From contig NZ_CP084930.1 of NCBI RefSeq assembly GCF_023822065.1, positions 2,744,001 to 2,808,000 on the forward strand: a stretch of DNA of 64,000 nt. Reading direction: 5' to 3'. Both the position numbers and the translations under genes were made by a program. Below are positions 40,872 to 46,415 of this stretch, piece after piece. The notes under the pieces were generated by a model. It had not been told where the DNA came from and made no database searches. It saw only the letters and a list, made by a program, of their open reading frames with translations. Numbering within the stretch: position 1 is the first letter of the stretch; each line of letters begins with the position of its first letter. Source of the DNA: Sphingomonas morindae. Its GTDB lineage: Bacteria; Pseudomonadota; Alphaproteobacteria; Sphingomonadales; Sphingomonadaceae.

Positions 40872-41339
40872 GTGACGAAAGGGGCAGGCGGACGATCCGG
40901 AGCGGTGGCCTTGCTGATGGCCGGCGCGCTGTGCGCGTGCAGCCGCGAGGCGCGCACGCTTGATGCCGATCAGCCCGAAACCGCGCCCGGCGCGCATCTG
41001 GACGCACGCGCCCAAGCCTATGCGGGCAATCTCTACCAGGCCGCGCAGGGCGGACGCTATTTCACCTGGTATGGCTGCGGCGCCTGCCATGGCGCGAACG
41101 CGCGCGGGGTGCGCGCGCTGGACGATGGCCGGTGGGTGCATGGCGGCCGGGTCGTGGACATCTACCGCTTCATCGCCGCCGGCCATGGCGAGGGCGGGCG
41201 AATTCCGGCCGCGCAGCTCTGGCAGATCGCAGGCTATCTGAAGTCGCTCGATGACACCGATCCGAAGCTGCGGCGGCGCCAGGATCTCGACCAGGCCGCC
41301 GAGCCGCAGGGACCGCGCTGGACCGGGCCGCAGCGATGA
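40872..41339 (+). CDS. c-type cytochrome lipoprotein, first gene of oxidase cluster
   Basis: A 155-residue exported protein with a hydrophobic leader ending LCAC, a possible lipobox, and one heme c motif, CGACH, in YGCGACHGANARGVRAL. The later region IPAAQLWQIAGYLKSLDD is the usual C-terminal helix of class I cytochromes c. GTG 40872 is the only suitable start in frame. It overlaps the subunit II gene by four bases, so it probably feeds electrons to this oxidase. Confidence 0.85.
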   Translation: MTKGAGGRSGAVALLMAGALCACSREARTLDADQPETAPGAHLDARAQAYAGNLYQAAQGGRYFTWYGCGACHGANARGVRALDDGRWVHGGRVVDIYRFIAAGHGEGGRIPAAQLWQIAGYLKSLDDTDPKLRRRQDLDQAAEPQGPRWTGPQR

Positions 41340-42322
41340 CGCGCCGCGACACGATCCCCTGCCTCCTCGCCGCCGCGAGCCTTGTCGCCGGCTGCGCGGG
41401 GCCGCAGAGCGCGCTGGCGCCGGCCGGCGACCAGGCGGCCTCGGTGTTCCGTCTGTTCGGGCTGATGCTGCTGGTGTGCGGCCTCTTCTATGGCGCGGTG
41501 CTGACGCTGCTCGGCTGGAGCCTTGCCCGCGGCGGCCGGGCGGTGGCGGAGCCATGGCTGCGGCGCGGGCTCTGGAGCTGGGGCGGGCTCATCATCGCCG
41601 GGCTGCTGGTGCTGCTCACCGGCAGCGTCCTGGTGGAGCGGGATCTCGCCGGCGCCCGCGCGCGCGAGACGCTGGTGGTGAAGGTGACGGGCCATCAATG
41701 GTGGTGGCGCATCGCCTATCGCGATCCCGCGAGCGGCCGCTGGTTCGAGACGGCCAACGAGCTGCACCTGCCGGCGGGCCGCACCAGCCGGCTCGATCTC
41801 GGCACGGCCGATGTCATCCACAGCCTGTGGATCCCGACGCTGTCGGGCAAGATGGATCTCATCCCCGGCCGCGCCAATGCGCTCGATGTCACGCCGCGCG
41901 TGCCCGGCATCTATCGCGGTCAATGCGCCGAGTTCTGCGGCGCGCAACATGCGCATATGGGGCTCGCCGTGGTGGTGGAGCCGCCCGCGCGCTTCGCCGC
42001 CTGGCTCGCCGCGCAGGCCGCCCCCGCACAGGCTCCGGCCGATCCCGTCGCCCGGCGGGGCGCGCAGGTGGTGACGCAGGGCGCCTGCGCCGCCTGCCAT
42101 CTGGTGCGCGGCACCGCCGCCACCGGGCGGGCGGGGCCGGACCTGACCCATGTCGCCAGCCGCCAGTCGCTCGCCGCCGGGCTGCTGCCGATGGGGCGCG
42201 GCGCCCTGCAGGGCTGGATCGGCCAGCCCCAGGCGCTCAAGCCCGGCACGATGATGCCGGCGGTGCCGCTCGACGCAGCCGATCTCAACGCCGCCGCGCA
42301 TTATCTGGAGACGCTGCGATGA
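41336..42322 (+). CDS. ctaC: Cytochrome c oxidase subunit II with fused cytochrome c
   Basis: A 328-residue subunit of a caa3-like oxidase. A lipoprotein-type leader (SLVAGC) and two helices (about 40-60 and 80-100) precede the CuA domain: VTGHQWWWRIAY, VIHSLWIPTLSGKMD, and CAEFCGAQHAHM with Cys197, Cys201, His205 and Met208. A C-terminal cytochrome c domain holds CAACH (251-255) and axial Met in GTMMPAVP. All CuA ligands and the heme motif are intact. Stop and start codons overlap with the neighbours on both sides. Confidence 0.94.
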   Translation: MTRRDTIPCLLAAASLVAGCAGPQSALAPAGDQAASVFRLFGLMLLVCGLFYGAVLTLLGWSLARGGRAVAEPWLRRGLWSWGGLIIAGLLVLLTGSVLVERDLAGARARETLVVKVTGHQWWWRIAYRDPASGRWFETANELHLPAGRTSRLDLGTADVIHSLWIPTLSGKMDLIPGRANALDVTPRVPGIYRGQCAEFCGAQHAHMGLAVVVEPPARFAAWLAAQAAPAQAPADPVARRGAQVVTQGACAACHLVRGTAATGRAGPDLTHVASRQSLAAGLLPMGRGALQGWIGQPQALKPGTMMPAVPLDAADLNAAAHYLETLR

Positions 42323-44193
42323 CCGAGCGGCTCGCCGCCAGCTGGGCCGATCCACCCGGGCTGAAGGGCTTTCTGTTCACCGTGGACCATAAGCGCATCG
42401 CCGGTCGCTACATCGTCACGGCGATGGCGATGATGGCGCTGGCCGGCCTGCTGGCGCTCGACATGCGCTGGCAGCTCAGCCTGCCGGGCATGCGGCGCAT
42501 GGGCCCGCAGCTGTTCAACGAAAGCTTCGCGCTGCACGGCTCGACCATGTTGTTCCTCGTCTCGGTGCCGGTGATGGAGGCGATGGCCTTGTGGCTGGTG
42601 CCGCTCATGCTGGGCCAGCGCAACATGGCCTTTCCGCGCCTGTCCGCCTTCAGCTACTGGCTCTATCTGGGCGGCGTGCTGATGCTGTGGGTGCCGCATG
42701 CGCTCGGCATCACGCCCGATCTCGGCTGGTTCGAATATCCGCCGCTGTCCGGCCCGGGCTATTCGCCCGGCCATCGCGCCGATATCTGGGCGCAGATGAT
42801 CACCTTCACCGAAGTCGCCGCGCTGGCCGCCTCGGTGAATGTCAGCGTCACCATCCTCAAGCTGCGGCCGCCGGGCATGACCCTGCCGCGCATGCCGCTG
42901 TTCCTCTGGGCGATGCTGGTCGCCTCGCTGATGACGATCTTCGCGCTGCCCGCCGTGATGCTGGCGACGAGCATGCTGATCGCGGACCGGCTGGTCGGCA
43001 CGCAATTCTTCGCCCCGGCGGCGGGCGGCGACGTGCTGCTGTTCCAGCACATGTTCTGGTTCTTCGGCCATCCCGAGGTCTACATCATCTTCGTGCCGGC
43101 GGTCGGCTTCGTCTCGACCATCGTCGAGACCTTCTGCCGGCGGCCCGTCTTCGGCTATCCCGCGATGGTGCTGTCGATCCTCGCCATCGGCACGCTCGCC
43201 TTCGGCCTGTGGGTGCACCACATGTTCGCGGTCGGCCTGCCGCGGCTGGGCAATGATTTCTACACCGCAGCGAGCATGACGATCGCGCTTCCGGCGGGGC
43301 TGCAGATCTTCTGCTGGATCGCCACGATCGCCGGCGGCCGGGTGCGGCTCGCCTTGCCGATGCTGTGGGTGCTCGCCTTCATCGTCACCTTCGTGATCGG
43401 CGGCCTGACGGGGGTGATGACCGCCGCCGCGCCGCTCGACCTGCAACTGACCGACACCTATTTCGTGGTCGCGCACTTCCATTATGTGCTGGTCGGCGGC
43501 GCCATCTTCCCGCTGCTCGGCGCCTTCACCTACTGGTATCCCAAGGCGACCGGACGGATGCTGGGGGAGCGGCTGGGCCGGCTCGCCTTCGCGGCGATCG
43601 TCGGCGGGTTCAATCTCGGCTTCTTCCCGATGCACATACTCGGCCTGTGGGGCATGCCGCGCCGGGTCTATACCTATGGCCCGGAAATGGGCTGGGGACC
43701 GCTCAACCTGCTCGCCACCTTCGGCTCCACGGTGGCGGTGGGCGGGGGGCTGCTGTTCGTCGCCAACGCGCTGTGGAGCCTGTGGCGCGGGCTGCCCGCG
43801 GGGGCCAATCCCTGGGGCGCGGCGACGCTGGAATGGGCGACCGCCTCGCCGCCGCCGGCGCCGAGCTTCGCCATGGTGCCGGTGGTGGACAGCCTCACCC
43901 CGCTCTGGCCGGGCGACGCGCCGCTGCGCGTGATGACCGGGCTGCGCGACGATCGGCGCGAGCTGCTCGTCACCTCGGTGGTGGAGGCTCTGCCGCTCTA
44001 CCGCCAGAAGAGCCCCGGCCCCTCGGCCTGGCCGCTGGTGGCCGCCCTGGCCGTCTCGGTGCTGTTCCTCGGCAGCATCTTCACGCCCTGGGCGCTGATC
44101 TGGGGCGCGGTGCCGGTGGCGGTGGCGCTGACCTTCTGGTTCTGGCCCCACCGCCCGCGCGCGCGCCACGGCCCGCTGGCGGCGCGGCGATGA
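42319..44193 (+). CDS. ctaD: Heme-copper oxidase subunit I lacking canonical D/K-channel residues
   Basis: A 624-residue, 12-helix-core subunit that reduces O2. Ligands are intact: His73 (ALHGSTMLF) and His388 for the low-spin heme; His386 for the high-spin heme; His251, His300 and His301 for CuB; Tyr255 in HPEVY forms the His-Tyr site. Glu253 (HPEV) is also present. In contrast the D-channel entry reads GQRNMAFPRLS, with Asn102 in place of Asp, and Ser109 where Asn is usual. The K-channel helix reads LPAGLQIFCW, with Gln329 in place of Lys. About 110 residues follow the core, ending in two further helices. It overlaps subunit II and III genes by 4 bases each. Likely an alternative oxidase. 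Confidence 0.94.
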   Translation: MTERLAASWADPPGLKGFLFTVDHKRIAGRYIVTAMAMMALAGLLALDMRWQLSLPGMRRMGPQLFNESFALHGSTMLFLVSVPVMEAMALWLVPLMLGQRNMAFPRLSAFSYWLYLGGVLMLWVPHALGITPDLGWFEYPPLSGPGYSPGHRADIWAQMITFTEVAALAASVNVSVTILKLRPPGMTLPRMPLFLWAMLVASLMTIFALPAVMLATSMLIADRLVGTQFFAPAAGGDVLLFQHMFWFFGHPEVYIIFVPAVGFVSTIVETFCRRPVFGYPAMVLSILAIGTLAFGLWVHHMFAVGLPRLGNDFYTAASMTIALPAGLQIFCWIATIAGGRVRLALPMLWVLAFIVTFVIGGLTGVMTAAAPLDLQLTDTYFVVAHFHYVLVGGAIFPLLGAFTYWYPKATGRMLGERLGRLAFAAIVGGFNLGFFPMHILGLWGMPRRVYTYGPEMGWGPLNLLATFGSTVAVGGGLLFVANALWSLWRGLPAGANPWGAATLEWATASPPPAPSFAMVPVVDSLTPLWPGDAPLRVMTGLRDDRRELLVTSVVEALPLYRQKSPGPSAWPLVAALAVSVLFLGSIFTPWALIWGAVPVAVALTFWFWPHRPRARHGPLAARR

Positions 44194-44807
44194 GCGCGCC
44201 GCCCGCCACCCAGATCGTCGGCGACCTGTCCGGCCTGCCGGACAGCGACAGCGGCCCGCGCCACCTCGTCTGGTGGGGCAATCTCGGCTTCATGCTGATC
44301 GAGGGTACCGGCTTCGCGCTCGCCATCGCCGCCGCGCTCTTTCTGTGGAGCCGCGCGCCCGCCTGGCCGCCGCCCGGCGATGCCCCGCCCGCGCTGCTGT
44401 GGAGCGGGCTGCTCACGCTCGGCCTCTTCGCCAGCGGCCTGCCCAATGGCTGGGTGAAGCGGCGCGCGCTGGCCAAGGATGCGGCGGGCGTGCGGCGCGG
44501 GGTGCTGGCCATGACGGTCATCGGCCTGGCGCTGCTGGCGGTGCGCGGCTTCGAGATCGCCGCGCTCACGCCCCGCTGGGACAAGGATGCCTATGGATCG
44601 GCGATCTGGATGCTCATGCTGCTCCACACCAGCCACATCCTCACCGATTGGGGCGACACGGCGGTGCAGGCGGCGTGGCTCTACACCCACAGCATCGGCG
44701 ACGACCAGTTCGCGGACGTGGAGGATAACTGCAACTACTGGTCGTTCGTCATCTGGGCCTGGGTGCCGCTCTATGCCGTGGTCTATTGGCTGCCGAGGCT
44801 GGGATGA
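44190..44807 (+). CDS. Cytochrome c oxidase subunit III-like protein
   Basis: A 205-residue protein with about five helices: WWGNLGFMLIEGTGFALAIAAALF near the N-terminus, and IWMLMLLHTSHILTDWGDT with a His-Thr-Ser-His segment similar to helix 5-6 of subunit III. CNYWSFVIWAWVPLYAVVYW at the end matches the terminal helix. It lacks the first two helices of the seven-helix form. Joined to subunit I by ATGA and to the next gene by ATGA. Confidence 0.85.
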   Translation: MSAPPATQIVGDLSGLPDSDSGPRHLVWWGNLGFMLIEGTGFALAIAAALFLWSRAPAWPPPGDAPPALLWSGLLTLGLFASGLPNGWVKRRALAKDAAGVRRGVLAMTVIGLALLAVRGFEIAALTPRWDKDAYGSAIWMLMLLHTSHILTDWGDTAVQAAWLYTHSIGDDQFADVEDNCNYWSFVIWAWVPLYAVVYWLPRLG

Positions 44808-45115
44808 GCGCGCGCGGGCGGGCATGGCTGGCGCTGCTGACGCCGGGTCTGGTCTGGTTTCTCCAGCAGCAGGCGATCGGCGGTCCGCTCCGCATCAACT
44901 GCCGGGTCGCCGATGCGGGCGCGGCGCTCGCCTGGGGGCTGGCGACGATCCTCGCCTGTGGCGGCGCGGCCTGGCTCGGCCGGCGCACCGCGCGGAGCGC
45001 GGAAGGCAGCACCGCCTGGCTGGCGCGGCTGGCGCCGCTCGCCGCGCTCGTCTTCGGGCTCGCCGCCCTGTTCGGCACGATCGCCGCCGCCGTGGTGCCG
45101 GCATGCGCGCGCTGA
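44804..45115 (+). CDS. Small membrane protein of the oxidase cluster
   Basis: 103 residues with three hydrophobic helices (about 8-22, 38-55 and 72-95). The hydrophilic bend has INCRVAD with a Cys. It overlaps both neighbours. I do not recognise a family. In clusters with two subunit III-like genes, this position is taken by the shorter one, so it may be a small subunit or an assembly protein. This is inference from position. Confidence 0.75.
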   Translation: MSARGRAWLALLTPGLVWFLQQQAIGGPLRINCRVADAGAALAWGLATILACGGAAWLGRRTARSAEGSTAWLARLAPLAALVFGLAALFGTIAAAVVPACAR

Positions 45116-46014
45116 GCCGCCGCCTCGCCTTTCTGTCCGCGCTGCTCGCGGCCGCGCCCGCCGCCGCGCATCCCGGCCACCACCACGGCGCGCCGGGATG
45201 GACCTGGGATCCCGCCATTCTCGTGCCGCTGGCGCTGGCCTTGGCGCTCTTCCTGATCGGCTGGCGCCGGATCGCCGCGCGCTCGGGCCGGGGCGCGGCG
45301 TGGCGGCGGCGGCTCGGCCTCTTCGTCGCGGGCTGGCTGATGCTGGCGGGCGCGCTCGTGTCGCCGCTGCACGAGGCGGGCGAGCGCAGCTTCGCGCTCC
45401 ACATGACCGAGCATGAGCTGCTGATGCTCGTCGCGGCGCCGCTGCTGGTGCTGGCGGAACCGCTGGCGGTGCTGCTCTGGGCCTTCCCGGCCGGCGCGCG
45501 GCGGGGGATCGGGCGGCTGGTGGCGCGGCCCTGGCTCGCCGCCATGTGGCGCTGGCTCACCGCGCCGGTGCCCGCGACCGCGCTGCAGGCGGCGGCGCTG
45601 TGGGGCTGGCATGCCCCCGCTTTGTTCGATCGGGCGCTGCGCAGCCCCGGCTGGCACGCGGCTCAGCATGCCAGCTTCCTCGCCACCGCGCTCCTCTTCT
45701 GGACGGCGATGCTGGGGCGGCGTGGCGGGCGGGCGGCGCATGCGGCGGGGCAGGCGGTGGCGGCCTTGTGCCTGTTCGCCACCTCGGTCGTCTCGGGCGG
45801 CCTCGGGGCGCTGATGGCCGTCTCGGACAGCCCCTGGTATGCGGGCTATGCCGCGCTCGGCCTCGCGCCTTTCGGCCTGACTCCGGCCGAGGATCAGCAG
45901 CTCGCGGGGCTGATCATGTGGGTGCCGGGCGGGCTCGTTCACGCGCTCGCGGCGCTGGTGCTGGTGCGCCAGCTCTTGATCCAGGGGGAGGCGCGCCATG
46001 CCGATGCCCTCTAG
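45103..46014 (+). CDS. ctaG: CtaG-type cytochrome oxidase assembly factor (caa3_CtaG)
   Basis: A 303-residue protein with a signal peptide (LLAAAPAAA), a His-rich HPGHHHG, then seven helices. LGLFVAGWLMLAGALVSPLHEAGERSFALHMTEHELLMLVAAPLLVL with two His, and LWGWHAPALFDRALRSPGWHAAQHASF, are the signatures of the Bacillus-type CtaG family, distinct from the Cox11 type. It helps to form the caa3-type CuB site in other bacteria. It overlaps the previous gene by 13 bases. Confidence 0.88.
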   Translation: MRALSRRLAFLSALLAAAPAAAHPGHHHGAPGWTWDPAILVPLALALALFLIGWRRIAARSGRGAAWRRRLGLFVAGWLMLAGALVSPLHEAGERSFALHMTEHELLMLVAAPLLVLAEPLAVLLWAFPAGARRGIGRLVARPWLAAMWRWLTAPVPATALQAAALWGWHAPALFDRALRSPGWHAAQHASFLATALLFWTAMLGRRGGRAAHAAGQAVAALCLFATSVVSGGLGALMAVSDSPWYAGYAALGLAPFGLTPAEDQQLAGLIMWVPGGLVHALAALVLVRQLLIQGEARHADAL

Positions 46015-46415
46015 CCTGCGCTTCGTGGCGCTGCTGCTCGGCCTCGGCGCGGCCTCGGCGCCGATCGCCTGGGATCGTGCAGGAGCATCAGGACGAGGCC
46101 CAGGCGCGTGTCCGCGCCGAGGCGATGACGGGCGGTTCGGCGGCGGCGGGGGCGATCGCGTTCGGCCGCTATGGCTGCGGCGCCTGCCATCGCGTGCGCG
46201 CCATCGCCGGCGCCGATGGCACGGTCGGGCCGCCGCTGGATCATTTCGCCCGCCGCACGCTGATCGCCGGCCGTTTCGCCAATGATCCGGCCAAGCTCGC
46301 CGCCTGGCTTGAGACGCCGCAGCGGCTCGTTCCGGGCAGCGGCATGCCTGATCTTGGCGTCACCCCGCGCGATGCGCGCGACATGGCCGCCTATCTCTAC
46401 ACGCTCCGTCCCTGA
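45998..46415 (+). pseudogene. Cytochrome c with apparent one-base frameshift after the signal peptide
   Basis: ATG 45998 has a strong ribosome site (GGGGGAGG) and starts a signal peptide, SSLRFVALLLGLGAASAP. The frame then turns to non-coding sequence at GGG 46071-46073. In the +1 frame the coding continues VQEHQDEAQARVRAE and the cytochrome body: CGACH in RYGCGACHRVRA, PPLDHF, and the axial Met in GSGMPDLG, ending at 46415. Removing one G at 46071-46073 joins the two parts into one protein of about 138 residues. It may be a true inactivating mutation or a sequencing error. Reading from GTG 46077 gives a version with no export signal. Confidence 0.75.

What the first reader, a model, noticed from the sequence alone, without database searches (positions are those of the whole stretch)
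42319..44193. Oxidase subunit I without canonical D- and K-channel residues
All six metal-ligand histidines, HPEVY Glu253 and Tyr255 are present, but the K-channel Lys (362 in Rhodobacter numbering) is Gln329 in LPAGLQIFCW, with Ala in place of Thr359. The D-channel entry Asp132 is Asn102 in RNMAFPRLS, and Asn139 is Ser109. These positions align without gaps in their motifs. In model aa3 oxidases the D132N change abolishes pumping and a K362 change blocks the reaction, so natural replacement of both suggests another proton route, or a non-pumping oxidase.
Basis: partly seen in the sequence, partly recalled or inferred. Interest (0 to 1): 0.72.

Follow-up and report, generated by a model that had tools for sequence, protein, structure and literature searches.

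The report
Oxidase clade missing standard proton channels
This gene belongs to a widespread family of bacterial oxygen-reducing enzymes whose usual proton-entry residues have been lost and replaced in a fixed pattern, which suggests that protons reach the active site by a route not described for this enzyme type.

Summary
Subunit I (window 42319-44193) keeps all six metal-ligand histidines, Glu286 and Tyr288 (R. sphaeroides numbering), but Asp132 is Asn, Asn139 is Ser, Lys362 is Gln and Thr359 is Ala. It is a clade property, not an oddity. Of 217 aligned rows, 90 lack both an acid at 132 and Lys362, among them Sphingomonas, Rhizobium, Mesorhizobium, Bradyrhizobium and Roseomonas. Subunit II has also lost the K-channel entry Glu101, in 91 of 91 rows of this clade. 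Three of the four essential channel-end residues are gone; CuA and active-site ligands remain. The losses are not drift. Gln362 is invariant, and a new membrane-helix Glu appears at position 198 (window E165): 143 of 143 rows with Gln362, 0 of 74 others. That is one clade, so one event. The operon fits the known 'COX operon type a-II'; none of nine literature searches found its channel residues described. Best reading: a working cytochrome c oxidase with one rebuilt proton input ending at Glu286. Whether it pumps, and from which side it draws protons, cannot be settled from sequence.

The parts
40872..41339 (+). c-type cytochrome gene (155 aa), first gene of the operon
   Evidence: weak ccoP-type match E=2.3e-5, no Pfam match; a blast hit in 80 of 80 relative loci
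41336..42322 (+). coxB: subunit II fused to a cytochrome c domain; CuA ligands present, K-channel entry Glu101 replaced by Leu
   Evidence: Pfam COX2 and Cytochrom_C; alignment to 1m56_B
42319..44193 (+). ctaD: subunit I, 624 aa, with two extra C-terminal helices (571-585, 591-607), as in COX1-COX4 fusions
42577..42579 (+). E87 (Rs116 or 117), new Glu in helix II
   Evidence: E in 31/31 G1a, 50/58 G1b, 1/2 G1x, 52/52 G2; 0 of 64 canonical plus control rows at 116 or 117; helix 63-97 in the model
42622..42624 (+). N102, the D-channel entry position (Asp132)
42643..42645 (+). S109, position of Asn139
42811..42813 (+). E165 (Rs198), new Glu in helix IV, invariant in G1 and G2
   Evidence: 143/143 rows with Gln362; 0/74 other rows
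43075..43077 (+). E253 (Glu286), the D-channel end, retained
43126..43128 (+). E270 (Rs303), new Glu four residues after K-channel Ser299
   Evidence: 31/31 G1a, 2/2 G1x, 5/58 G1b; 0/64 canonical plus control rows
43294..43305 (+). A326 (Thr359) and Q329 (Lys362) in LPAGLQIFCW
   Evidence: Gln invariant in 143/143
44190..44807 (+). short subunit III (COX3); start codon judged from the ATGA overlap with ctaD
   Evidence: PF00510, C-terminal part of the profile, E=2.3e-6; ATG checked
44804..45115 (+). small membrane-protein-like gene of unknown family (about 103 aa)
   Evidence: no Pfam or NCBIfam match; a blast hit in 26 of 80 loci
45103..46014 (+). Caa3_CtaG assembly factor; exact start uncertain
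   Evidence: PF09678 E=2.9e-53; a blast hit in 75 of 80 loci
45954..46415 (+). c-type cytochrome haem domain, last gene of the operon; start not settled
   Evidence: PF00034 E=8.8e-8; a blast hit in 80 of 80 loci

Best explanation
A functional cytochrome-c-fed haem-copper oxidase of the type a-II operon class. Electrons pass from c-type cytochromes to the cytochrome c domain of CoxB, then CuA, haem a, and the haem a3-CuB-Tyr site, where O2 becomes water. The two-subunit K-channel (Glu101 of subunit II to Lys362) was given up in the ancestor of the clade. All chemical protons then had to use a single input, rebuilt around the D-channel side: fixed glutamates in helix II (E87) and helix IV (E165) feed the retained Glu286 (E253). 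In the rhizobial branch a Glu at position 207 is added; in the Sphingomonas branch a Glu at 303 near the old K-channel mouth. Once that route existed, Asp132 became dispensable and was lost in the window's branch. Shown: the residue losses and gains, their conservation, intact metal ligands, operon and selection. Inferred: that the enzyme is active, that the new glutamates carry protons, that uptake is from the cytoplasm, and any pumping (probably reduced).
For: Coordinated loss in two subunits: Glu101(II) absent in 91/91 G1, 49/49 aligned G2 and 10/10 G3 rows but present in 13/13 aligned canonical rows; Lys362 absent in all 153 non-canonical rows (the groups were sorted by this residue, and the tree then finds these rows to be one clade). 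Gln362 and Glu198 are each invariant in 143/143. Glu198 is absent from all 74 rows outside that set, including 57 with Lys362 and Glu286. Clade support: SH-aLRT/UFBoot 99.6/100 on 66 taxa; FastTree 1.0 on 169 rows. Six His ligands intact in 153/153 and Tyr288 in 152/153; CuA ligands intact in 81/81. Purifying selection: dN/dS 0.20-0.35 for the window against four orthologues, 0.03-0.14 in three closer pairs. E87 and E165 lie inside predicted helices.
Against: No structure or assay. No coordinates were available, so whether E165 and E87 face the D-channel, a neighbouring helix, subunit III or the fused COX4 helices is unknown. Helical-wheel arithmetic (100 degrees per residue, no call) puts Rs198 about 100 degrees from Rs197 and opposite Rs207, so it need not face the D-channel lumen. 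The Glu198/Gln362 link is one clade, hence one event. Clade G3 lost Lys362 and Glu286 without gaining Glu198, and five A2-like control rows lost Lys362 without it, so Glu198 is not required for every Lys362 loss. In the window's branch most of the D-channel lining (N121, D132, N139, S200, S201) is gone, which weakens a cytoplasmic D-side route.
Confidence: 0.45

Rival explanations
1. A non-pumping (or barely pumping) cytoplasm-side oxidase: chemical protons leak in through a water-filled path, no vectorial pumping, the enzyme serving as an electron sink for dedicated dehydrogenases.
For: Loss of D132 and of much of the D-channel lining in the window's branch. Dehydrogenase neighbours: FdhF/YdeP-type hits within 6 kb in 47 of 80 loci, PQQ dehydrogenase in 9 of 80. 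The own genome also has a canonical aa3-like cytochrome c oxidase and three enzymes whose subunit II lacks CuA ligands, so this one need not carry the energy budget.
Against: Invariance of Gln362 and Glu198 and retention of Glu286 in the same 143 rows imply a selected proton path rather than loss of function. The window itself has no FdhF/YdeP or PQQ-dehydrogenase gene.
Confidence: 0.25
2. Proton uptake from the periplasmic side, making O2 reduction electroneutral, as reported for cNOR.
For: All three cytoplasmic entry or K-channel residues (D132, Glu101(II), Lys362) are gone. G1 gained polar residues on the helix IV stretch running from periplasmic D188 to Rs198: Q192, T195, T or S197 and E198, each 91/91. 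The window's branch also gained E97, H157 and E174 (31/31 each) and lost Mg ligand His411.
Against: Glu286 and Tyr33 are retained in this branch. Many of these residues could serve the proton exit side or cytochrome docking. Topology is recalled from the R. sphaeroides structure, not computed.
Confidence: 0.12
3. The K-channel still works as a water chain with Gln362, Ser299 and a new mouth Glu (E270) in subunit I instead of Glu101 of subunit II.
For: Gln362 and Ser352 in 143/143, Ser299 in 131/143; E270 in 31/31 of the window's branch.
Against: E270 is absent from most of the rhizobial branch (5/58 have it) and is not among the four commonest residues in G2, which also has Gln362. Gln is not protonatable.
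Confidence: 0.1
4. Not an oxidase: a NO reductase, a sensor or a decaying relic.
For: Lack of a cytoplasmic proton channel is reported for cNOR (PMC3084760 passages).
Against: CuB histidines and cross-link Tyr retained, neither NOR motif present, full oxidase operon with CuA and CtaG, purifying selection.
Confidence: 0.05

Closest known systems
COX operon type a-II (Degli Esposti 2014, PMC4013037), called A1 type, subtype a in PMC6431628
   Same: Long COX1 with a COX4-like C-terminal extension, short (5-helix) COX3, Caa3_CtaG, PQQ dehydrogenase genes in some members; named there for Rhizobium, Sinorhizobium, Mesorhizobium and Methylobacterium
   Different: The main text has no hit for 'proton' or 'channel'; the channel losses, subunit II Glu101 loss and new glutamates are added here. 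That paper lists Sphingomonadales as having only type b operons (passage), which the window and its Sphingomonas relatives contradict
Canonical A1 aa3 oxidase of R. sphaeroides (1m56)
   Same: Fold (TM 0.86 by target length, 0.76 by query length), haem and copper ligands, Tyr288, Glu286, CuA
   Different: No Asp132, Asn121, Asn139, Lys362, Thr359 or subunit II Glu101; new Glu at 198, 116/117 and 303
B- and C-type oxidases (ba3, cbb3)
   Same: A single proton input serving the enzyme (PMC8239185 passages: only a K-channel remains)
   Different: They keep a K-type path and lack the D side; here the K side is lost and the Glu286 end kept
Family A oxidases without a K-channel (archaeal tree in PMC8239418)
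   Same: Loss of the K-channel within family A is on record there (seven losses under a hypothesis the authors reject)
   Different: Archaeal tree; loss together with Asp132 in this operon class was not in the passages read
cNOR
   Same: No cytoplasmic proton channel, according to PMC3084760 (passages)
   Different: cNOR lacks the Tyr and has iron in place of CuB; here the Tyr and CuB ligands are kept

Membership tests
A1-type haem-copper oxidase (definition in PMC3084760) | D-channel set (Rs numbering Y33, N121, D132, N139, S142, S201, N207, E286) | tested here: not met
   4 of 8 in the window (Y33, S142, N207, E286)
A1-type haem-copper oxidase (definition in PMC3084760) | K-channel set (K362, T359, S299, Y288) | tested here: not met
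   2 of 4 (S299, Y288); subunit II Glu101 also lost
A1-type haem-copper oxidase (definition in PMC3084760) | Binuclear-centre ligands and cross-link Tyr; A-type fold; phylogeny | tested here: met
   ligands, Foldseek and Pfam; the clade groups beside canonical A rows (only A-type rows were in the tree)
COX operon type a-II | COX1 with COX4-like C-terminal helices; short COX3 | tested here: met
   two extra predicted helices 571-607 (their homology to COX4 was not tested); [quoted passage not shown]
COX operon type a-II | Caa3_CtaG and COX2-cytochrome c fusion | tested here: met
   75/80 and 80/80 loci have ctaG and coxB hits
COX operon type a-II | PQQ dehydrogenase often in the operon | tested here: not met
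   no PF01011 match in the window; the genome's only match lies elsewhere; 9 of 80 relatives have one nearby; described as 'often', not obligatory
NO reductase | H-X-Arom-X-E and HHX(Arom)(Arom)X17E motifs, no Tyr | tested here: not met
   neither motif found; Tyr255 and CuB histidines retained
Proton-pumping oxidase | measured H+/e- | not testable with these tools
   needs purified enzyme

The most novel reading that the evidence does not exclude
The window's branch is an A-family cytochrome c oxidase that takes its chemical protons from the periplasm through a helix IV polar ladder (Q192, T195, T197, E198), so it reduces O2 electroneutrally: a bona fide oxidase that has become bioenergetically like cNOR.
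Probability: 0.12. Interest if true: 0.9.

Novelty: new variant of a known kind. Interest (0 to 1): 0.62.

Why it matters
How protons enter and are gated in haem-copper oxidases has been worked out on enzymes in which Asp132, Glu286, Lys362 and subunit II Glu101 are treated as essential. Here is a natural, conserved clade missing three of the four, with a fixed set of possible substitute residues and a clean intermediate (G2: acid at 132 kept, Lys362 gone). It gives evolutionary variants with which to ask whether two inputs are needed for O2 chemistry and whether pumping needs the D-entry. Members sit in genetically tractable bacteria such as R. etli CFN42 plasmid p42b, presumably the RHE_PB00063-66 operon for which no mutant was made (PMC4274787 passages).

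Tried and rejected
NOR, sensor or relic: rejected on ligands, motifs, operon and selection. A shifted Lys or Asp hidden by misalignment: none at Rs347-371 or Rs122-142 apart from E353 in 7 G2 rows, the acids at 132 in G2, and E132 of L117; but a one-residue deletion near Rs114 leaves E87 as Rs116 or 117. General stress (EcfG-type) promoter, motif recalled: two matches in the window, as many as chance gives, neither near the operon; in 80 relatives 32 plus-strand hits against a shuffled mean of 11.75, at scattered places; not claimed. The second structural aligner was absent. No coordinates are exported, so no distances or water paths. Literature: nine searches in an open-licence library found no description of these channel losses for the a-II class. 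The 2020 BBA review by Degli Esposti is not held, and supplementary files could not be read, so priority may lie there. Sousa 2011 (PMC3084760, passages) states that only 4 of 1216 sequences lacked their family's channel residues, all B-like; that conflicts with this clade unless it was not sampled or was judged leniently.
Full report
Observation. Window 42319-44193 encodes an intact 624-residue COX1 protein. R. sphaeroides subunit I was taken from the printed alignment of 1m56_A and its numbering checked at 26 positions. Further losses are Asn121 to Leu, Ser200 and Ser201 to Ala.

Relatives. The genome-contig scan kept the best 80 of 164 confirmed loci. Whole-genome searches of 196 (order), 385 (class) and 398 (phylum) genomes gave more; only part of the listed matches were turned into loci. 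Of these, 169 COX1 rows, R. sphaeroides included, were aligned. They were then sorted by residue state: canonical 16; G1a 31 (window, Sphingomonas, Novosphingobium, Aureimonas and others); G1b 58 (Rhizobium, Mesorhizobium, Bradyrhizobium, Roseomonas and others); G1x 2 (L084, L117); G2 52; G3 10. Position 132 is N, A or T in all G1a, N in all G1b, S in L084, E in L117, D or E in G2, D in G3. Position 362 is Q in all G1 and G2 rows; A, S, T or G in G3; K in canonical rows (by definition of that group).

Tree. In a 66-taxon IQ-TREE (LG+F+R5; 66 of the 169 rows, chosen by me) the whole Lys362-lacking clade has support 99.6/100, G1+G2 96.4/99, G1 with L117 99.7/100, G1 without L117 only 64.6/95, G1a 100/100, G1b 97/99, G3 100/100 (read as bipartitions). 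Labels printed were shifted by re-rooting and are not used. On this tree, loss of Lys362 is basal; loss of the acid at 132 is within G1, after L117, but that node is the weakest.

Subunit II. Glu101, the K-channel entry (index 76 of 1m56_B as printed, plus 25), is E in the own canonical enzyme and in 13 of 13 aligned canonical rows (one of 14 had a gap). It is L or M in 30/30 G1a, V or I in 50/50 G1b and L in L084. Ten further G1 rows also lack it, as do all 49 aligned G2 rows (3 more had a gap) and 10 G3 rows. CuA ligands are intact in 81/81 rows; a few G2 rows and one further G1b row differ at a ligand position in the cruder alignment.

Gains. Scanning the columns for group-specific charge picked out Rs198 (window E165): E in 143/143 G1+G2 rows. 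As control, a PF00115 search of 60 genomes gave 29 new loci of best-scoring matches, and I chose 20 further matches by score. Of these 49 loci, L220 had no phmmer match to the three family A queries and was dropped; 48 were used. They are not a random sample, and L178 is, by its coordinates, the same gene as canonical row L030. In all 217 rows (two groups of identical sequences): no acid at 132, no K, E286, E198: 90; acid, no K, E286, E198: 53; acid, K, E286, no E198: 57; acid, no K, W286, no E198: 10 (G3); acid, no K, A286, no E198: 5 (YSHPAVY rows L201-L203, L222, L223); acid, K, A286, no E198: 2. So Lys362 is lost elsewhere too, but loss of both 132 and 362 was seen only in G1. The Glu198/Gln362 match is perfect yet comes from one clade, so it counts as one event. 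Other gains: E87 (Rs116/117) in 31/31 G1a, 50/58 G1b, 1/2 G1x, 52/52 G2; Glu207 in 57/58 G1b and 51/52 G2; E270 (Rs303) in 31/31 G1a; R30 (Rs32, beside Tyr33) in 91/91 G1.

Selection and operon. Nei-Gojobori dN/dS is 0.20, 0.24, 0.28 and 0.35 for the window gene against four orthologues, and 0.03, 0.08 and 0.14 for three closer pairs. Among 80 loci, blast hits to the window genes were: upstream cytochrome c 80, coxB 80, ctaD 80, cox3 79, ctaG 75, downstream cytochrome c 80, the 102-aa protein 26 (best hits only, cytochrome c hits can be unspecific). In 75 of 80 the order upstream cytochrome c, coxB, ctaD, cox3, downstream cytochrome c holds on one strand by the starts of stop-to-stop frames; in four the starts of overlapping frames are out of order, and L099 has no cox3 hit. 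An FdhF/YdeP-family oxidoreductase hit (the query protein is TIGR01701) lies within 6 kb in 47/80 loci: 39 upstream on the same strand, 2 upstream and 6 downstream on the other; three hits are partial (L055, L100, L113). A PQQ dehydrogenase hit lies nearby in 9/80. The window has neither: its flanking genes are a TonB receptor, an SDR and an SMP-30-type gene, and the own genome's two TIGR01701 genes and one weak PQQ match lie elsewhere. The own genome has five COX1 genes: this one, one with a canonical CuA subunit, and three whose subunit II lacks CuA ligands.

Structure. AlphaFold2 from 34 rows: mean pLDDT 80.2, pTM 0.85. Of the 50 Foldseek rows listed, by their titles all are oxidase or respiratory-supercomplex entries; 1m56_A has TM 0.86 by target length. 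E87 and E165 lie in helices 63-97 and 154-181.

Interpretation. In the canonical enzyme the essential ionizable ends are Asp132 and Glu286 (D) and Glu101(II) and Lys362 (K) (PMC8239185, passages). Here only Glu286 remains. The enzyme must still deliver four chemical protons per O2. Invariant Gln362 and Glu198 argue for a selected replacement. I commit to one rebuilt input ending at Glu286 (0.45), with non-pumping, periplasmic-uptake, rewired-K and non-oxidase rivals. Side of uptake and pumping are not decided by these data.

Known and new. The operon class is known (PMC4013037 and PMC6431628, passages), though the former lists Sphingomonadales as having only type b operons. Loss of the K-channel in family A is known in principle (PMC8239418, passages and section 11). 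Loss of both entries in this class, the subunit II loss and the compensating glutamates were not found in the nine searches listed under Tried and rejected. Other papers seen only as passages: PMC5492768, PMC4274787, PMC10715153, PMC9145763, PMC7618691, PMC3084760. Depth and orientation of helices, the EcfG motif, mutant phenotypes and channel-residue roles beyond those papers are recalled.

Noticed in passing
L008, L009, L010, L012, L119, L121, L128, L154, L155, L156: A sister clade (G3) has HPWVY: Glu286 is Trp, Lys362 is Ala/Ser/Thr/Gly, yet Asp132, Asn121, Asn139 and Asn207 are kept. It lacks the D-channel end instead of the entry.
   Followed up: partly
L201, L202, L203, L222, L223: A2-like rows (YSHPAVY) with Leu or Met at 362 and Ala at 121: what looks like a separate loss of Lys362.
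   Followed up: no
window 43450-43452 (T378) and the G1a rows: The Mg/Mn ligand His411 is Thr in 31/31 G1a and 9/10 G3 rows but His in 58/58 G1b rows.
   Followed up: no
L036-L115 flanks: FdhF/YdeP-family molybdopterin oxidoreductase hits lie beside this oxidase in 47 of 80 loci, 39 of them upstream on the same strand: a possible dedicated electron donor.
   Followed up: partly
window 45998-46415: A signal-peptide-like start at 45998 and the haem domain of the downstream cytochrome c lie in different frames; start or integrity of this gene is unclear.
   Followed up: no
L048: Tyr288 reads Asn (HPEVN) in one MAG-derived row; may be a sequencing error.
   Followed up: no
L171:8986-10875: The Sphingobium yanoikuyae orthologue is annotated as 'cbb3-type cytochrome c oxidase subunit I', which its sequence does not support.
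   Followed up: no
L170:8986-10857: The Mesorhizobium japonicum pMLb member has His at position 132, another non-acid replacement.
   Followed up: no
L024, L026, L027 and four other G2 rows: Seven G2 rows carry a Glu at Rs353 in helix VIII, six residues before the Thr359 position (three of the rows seen).
   Followed up: no
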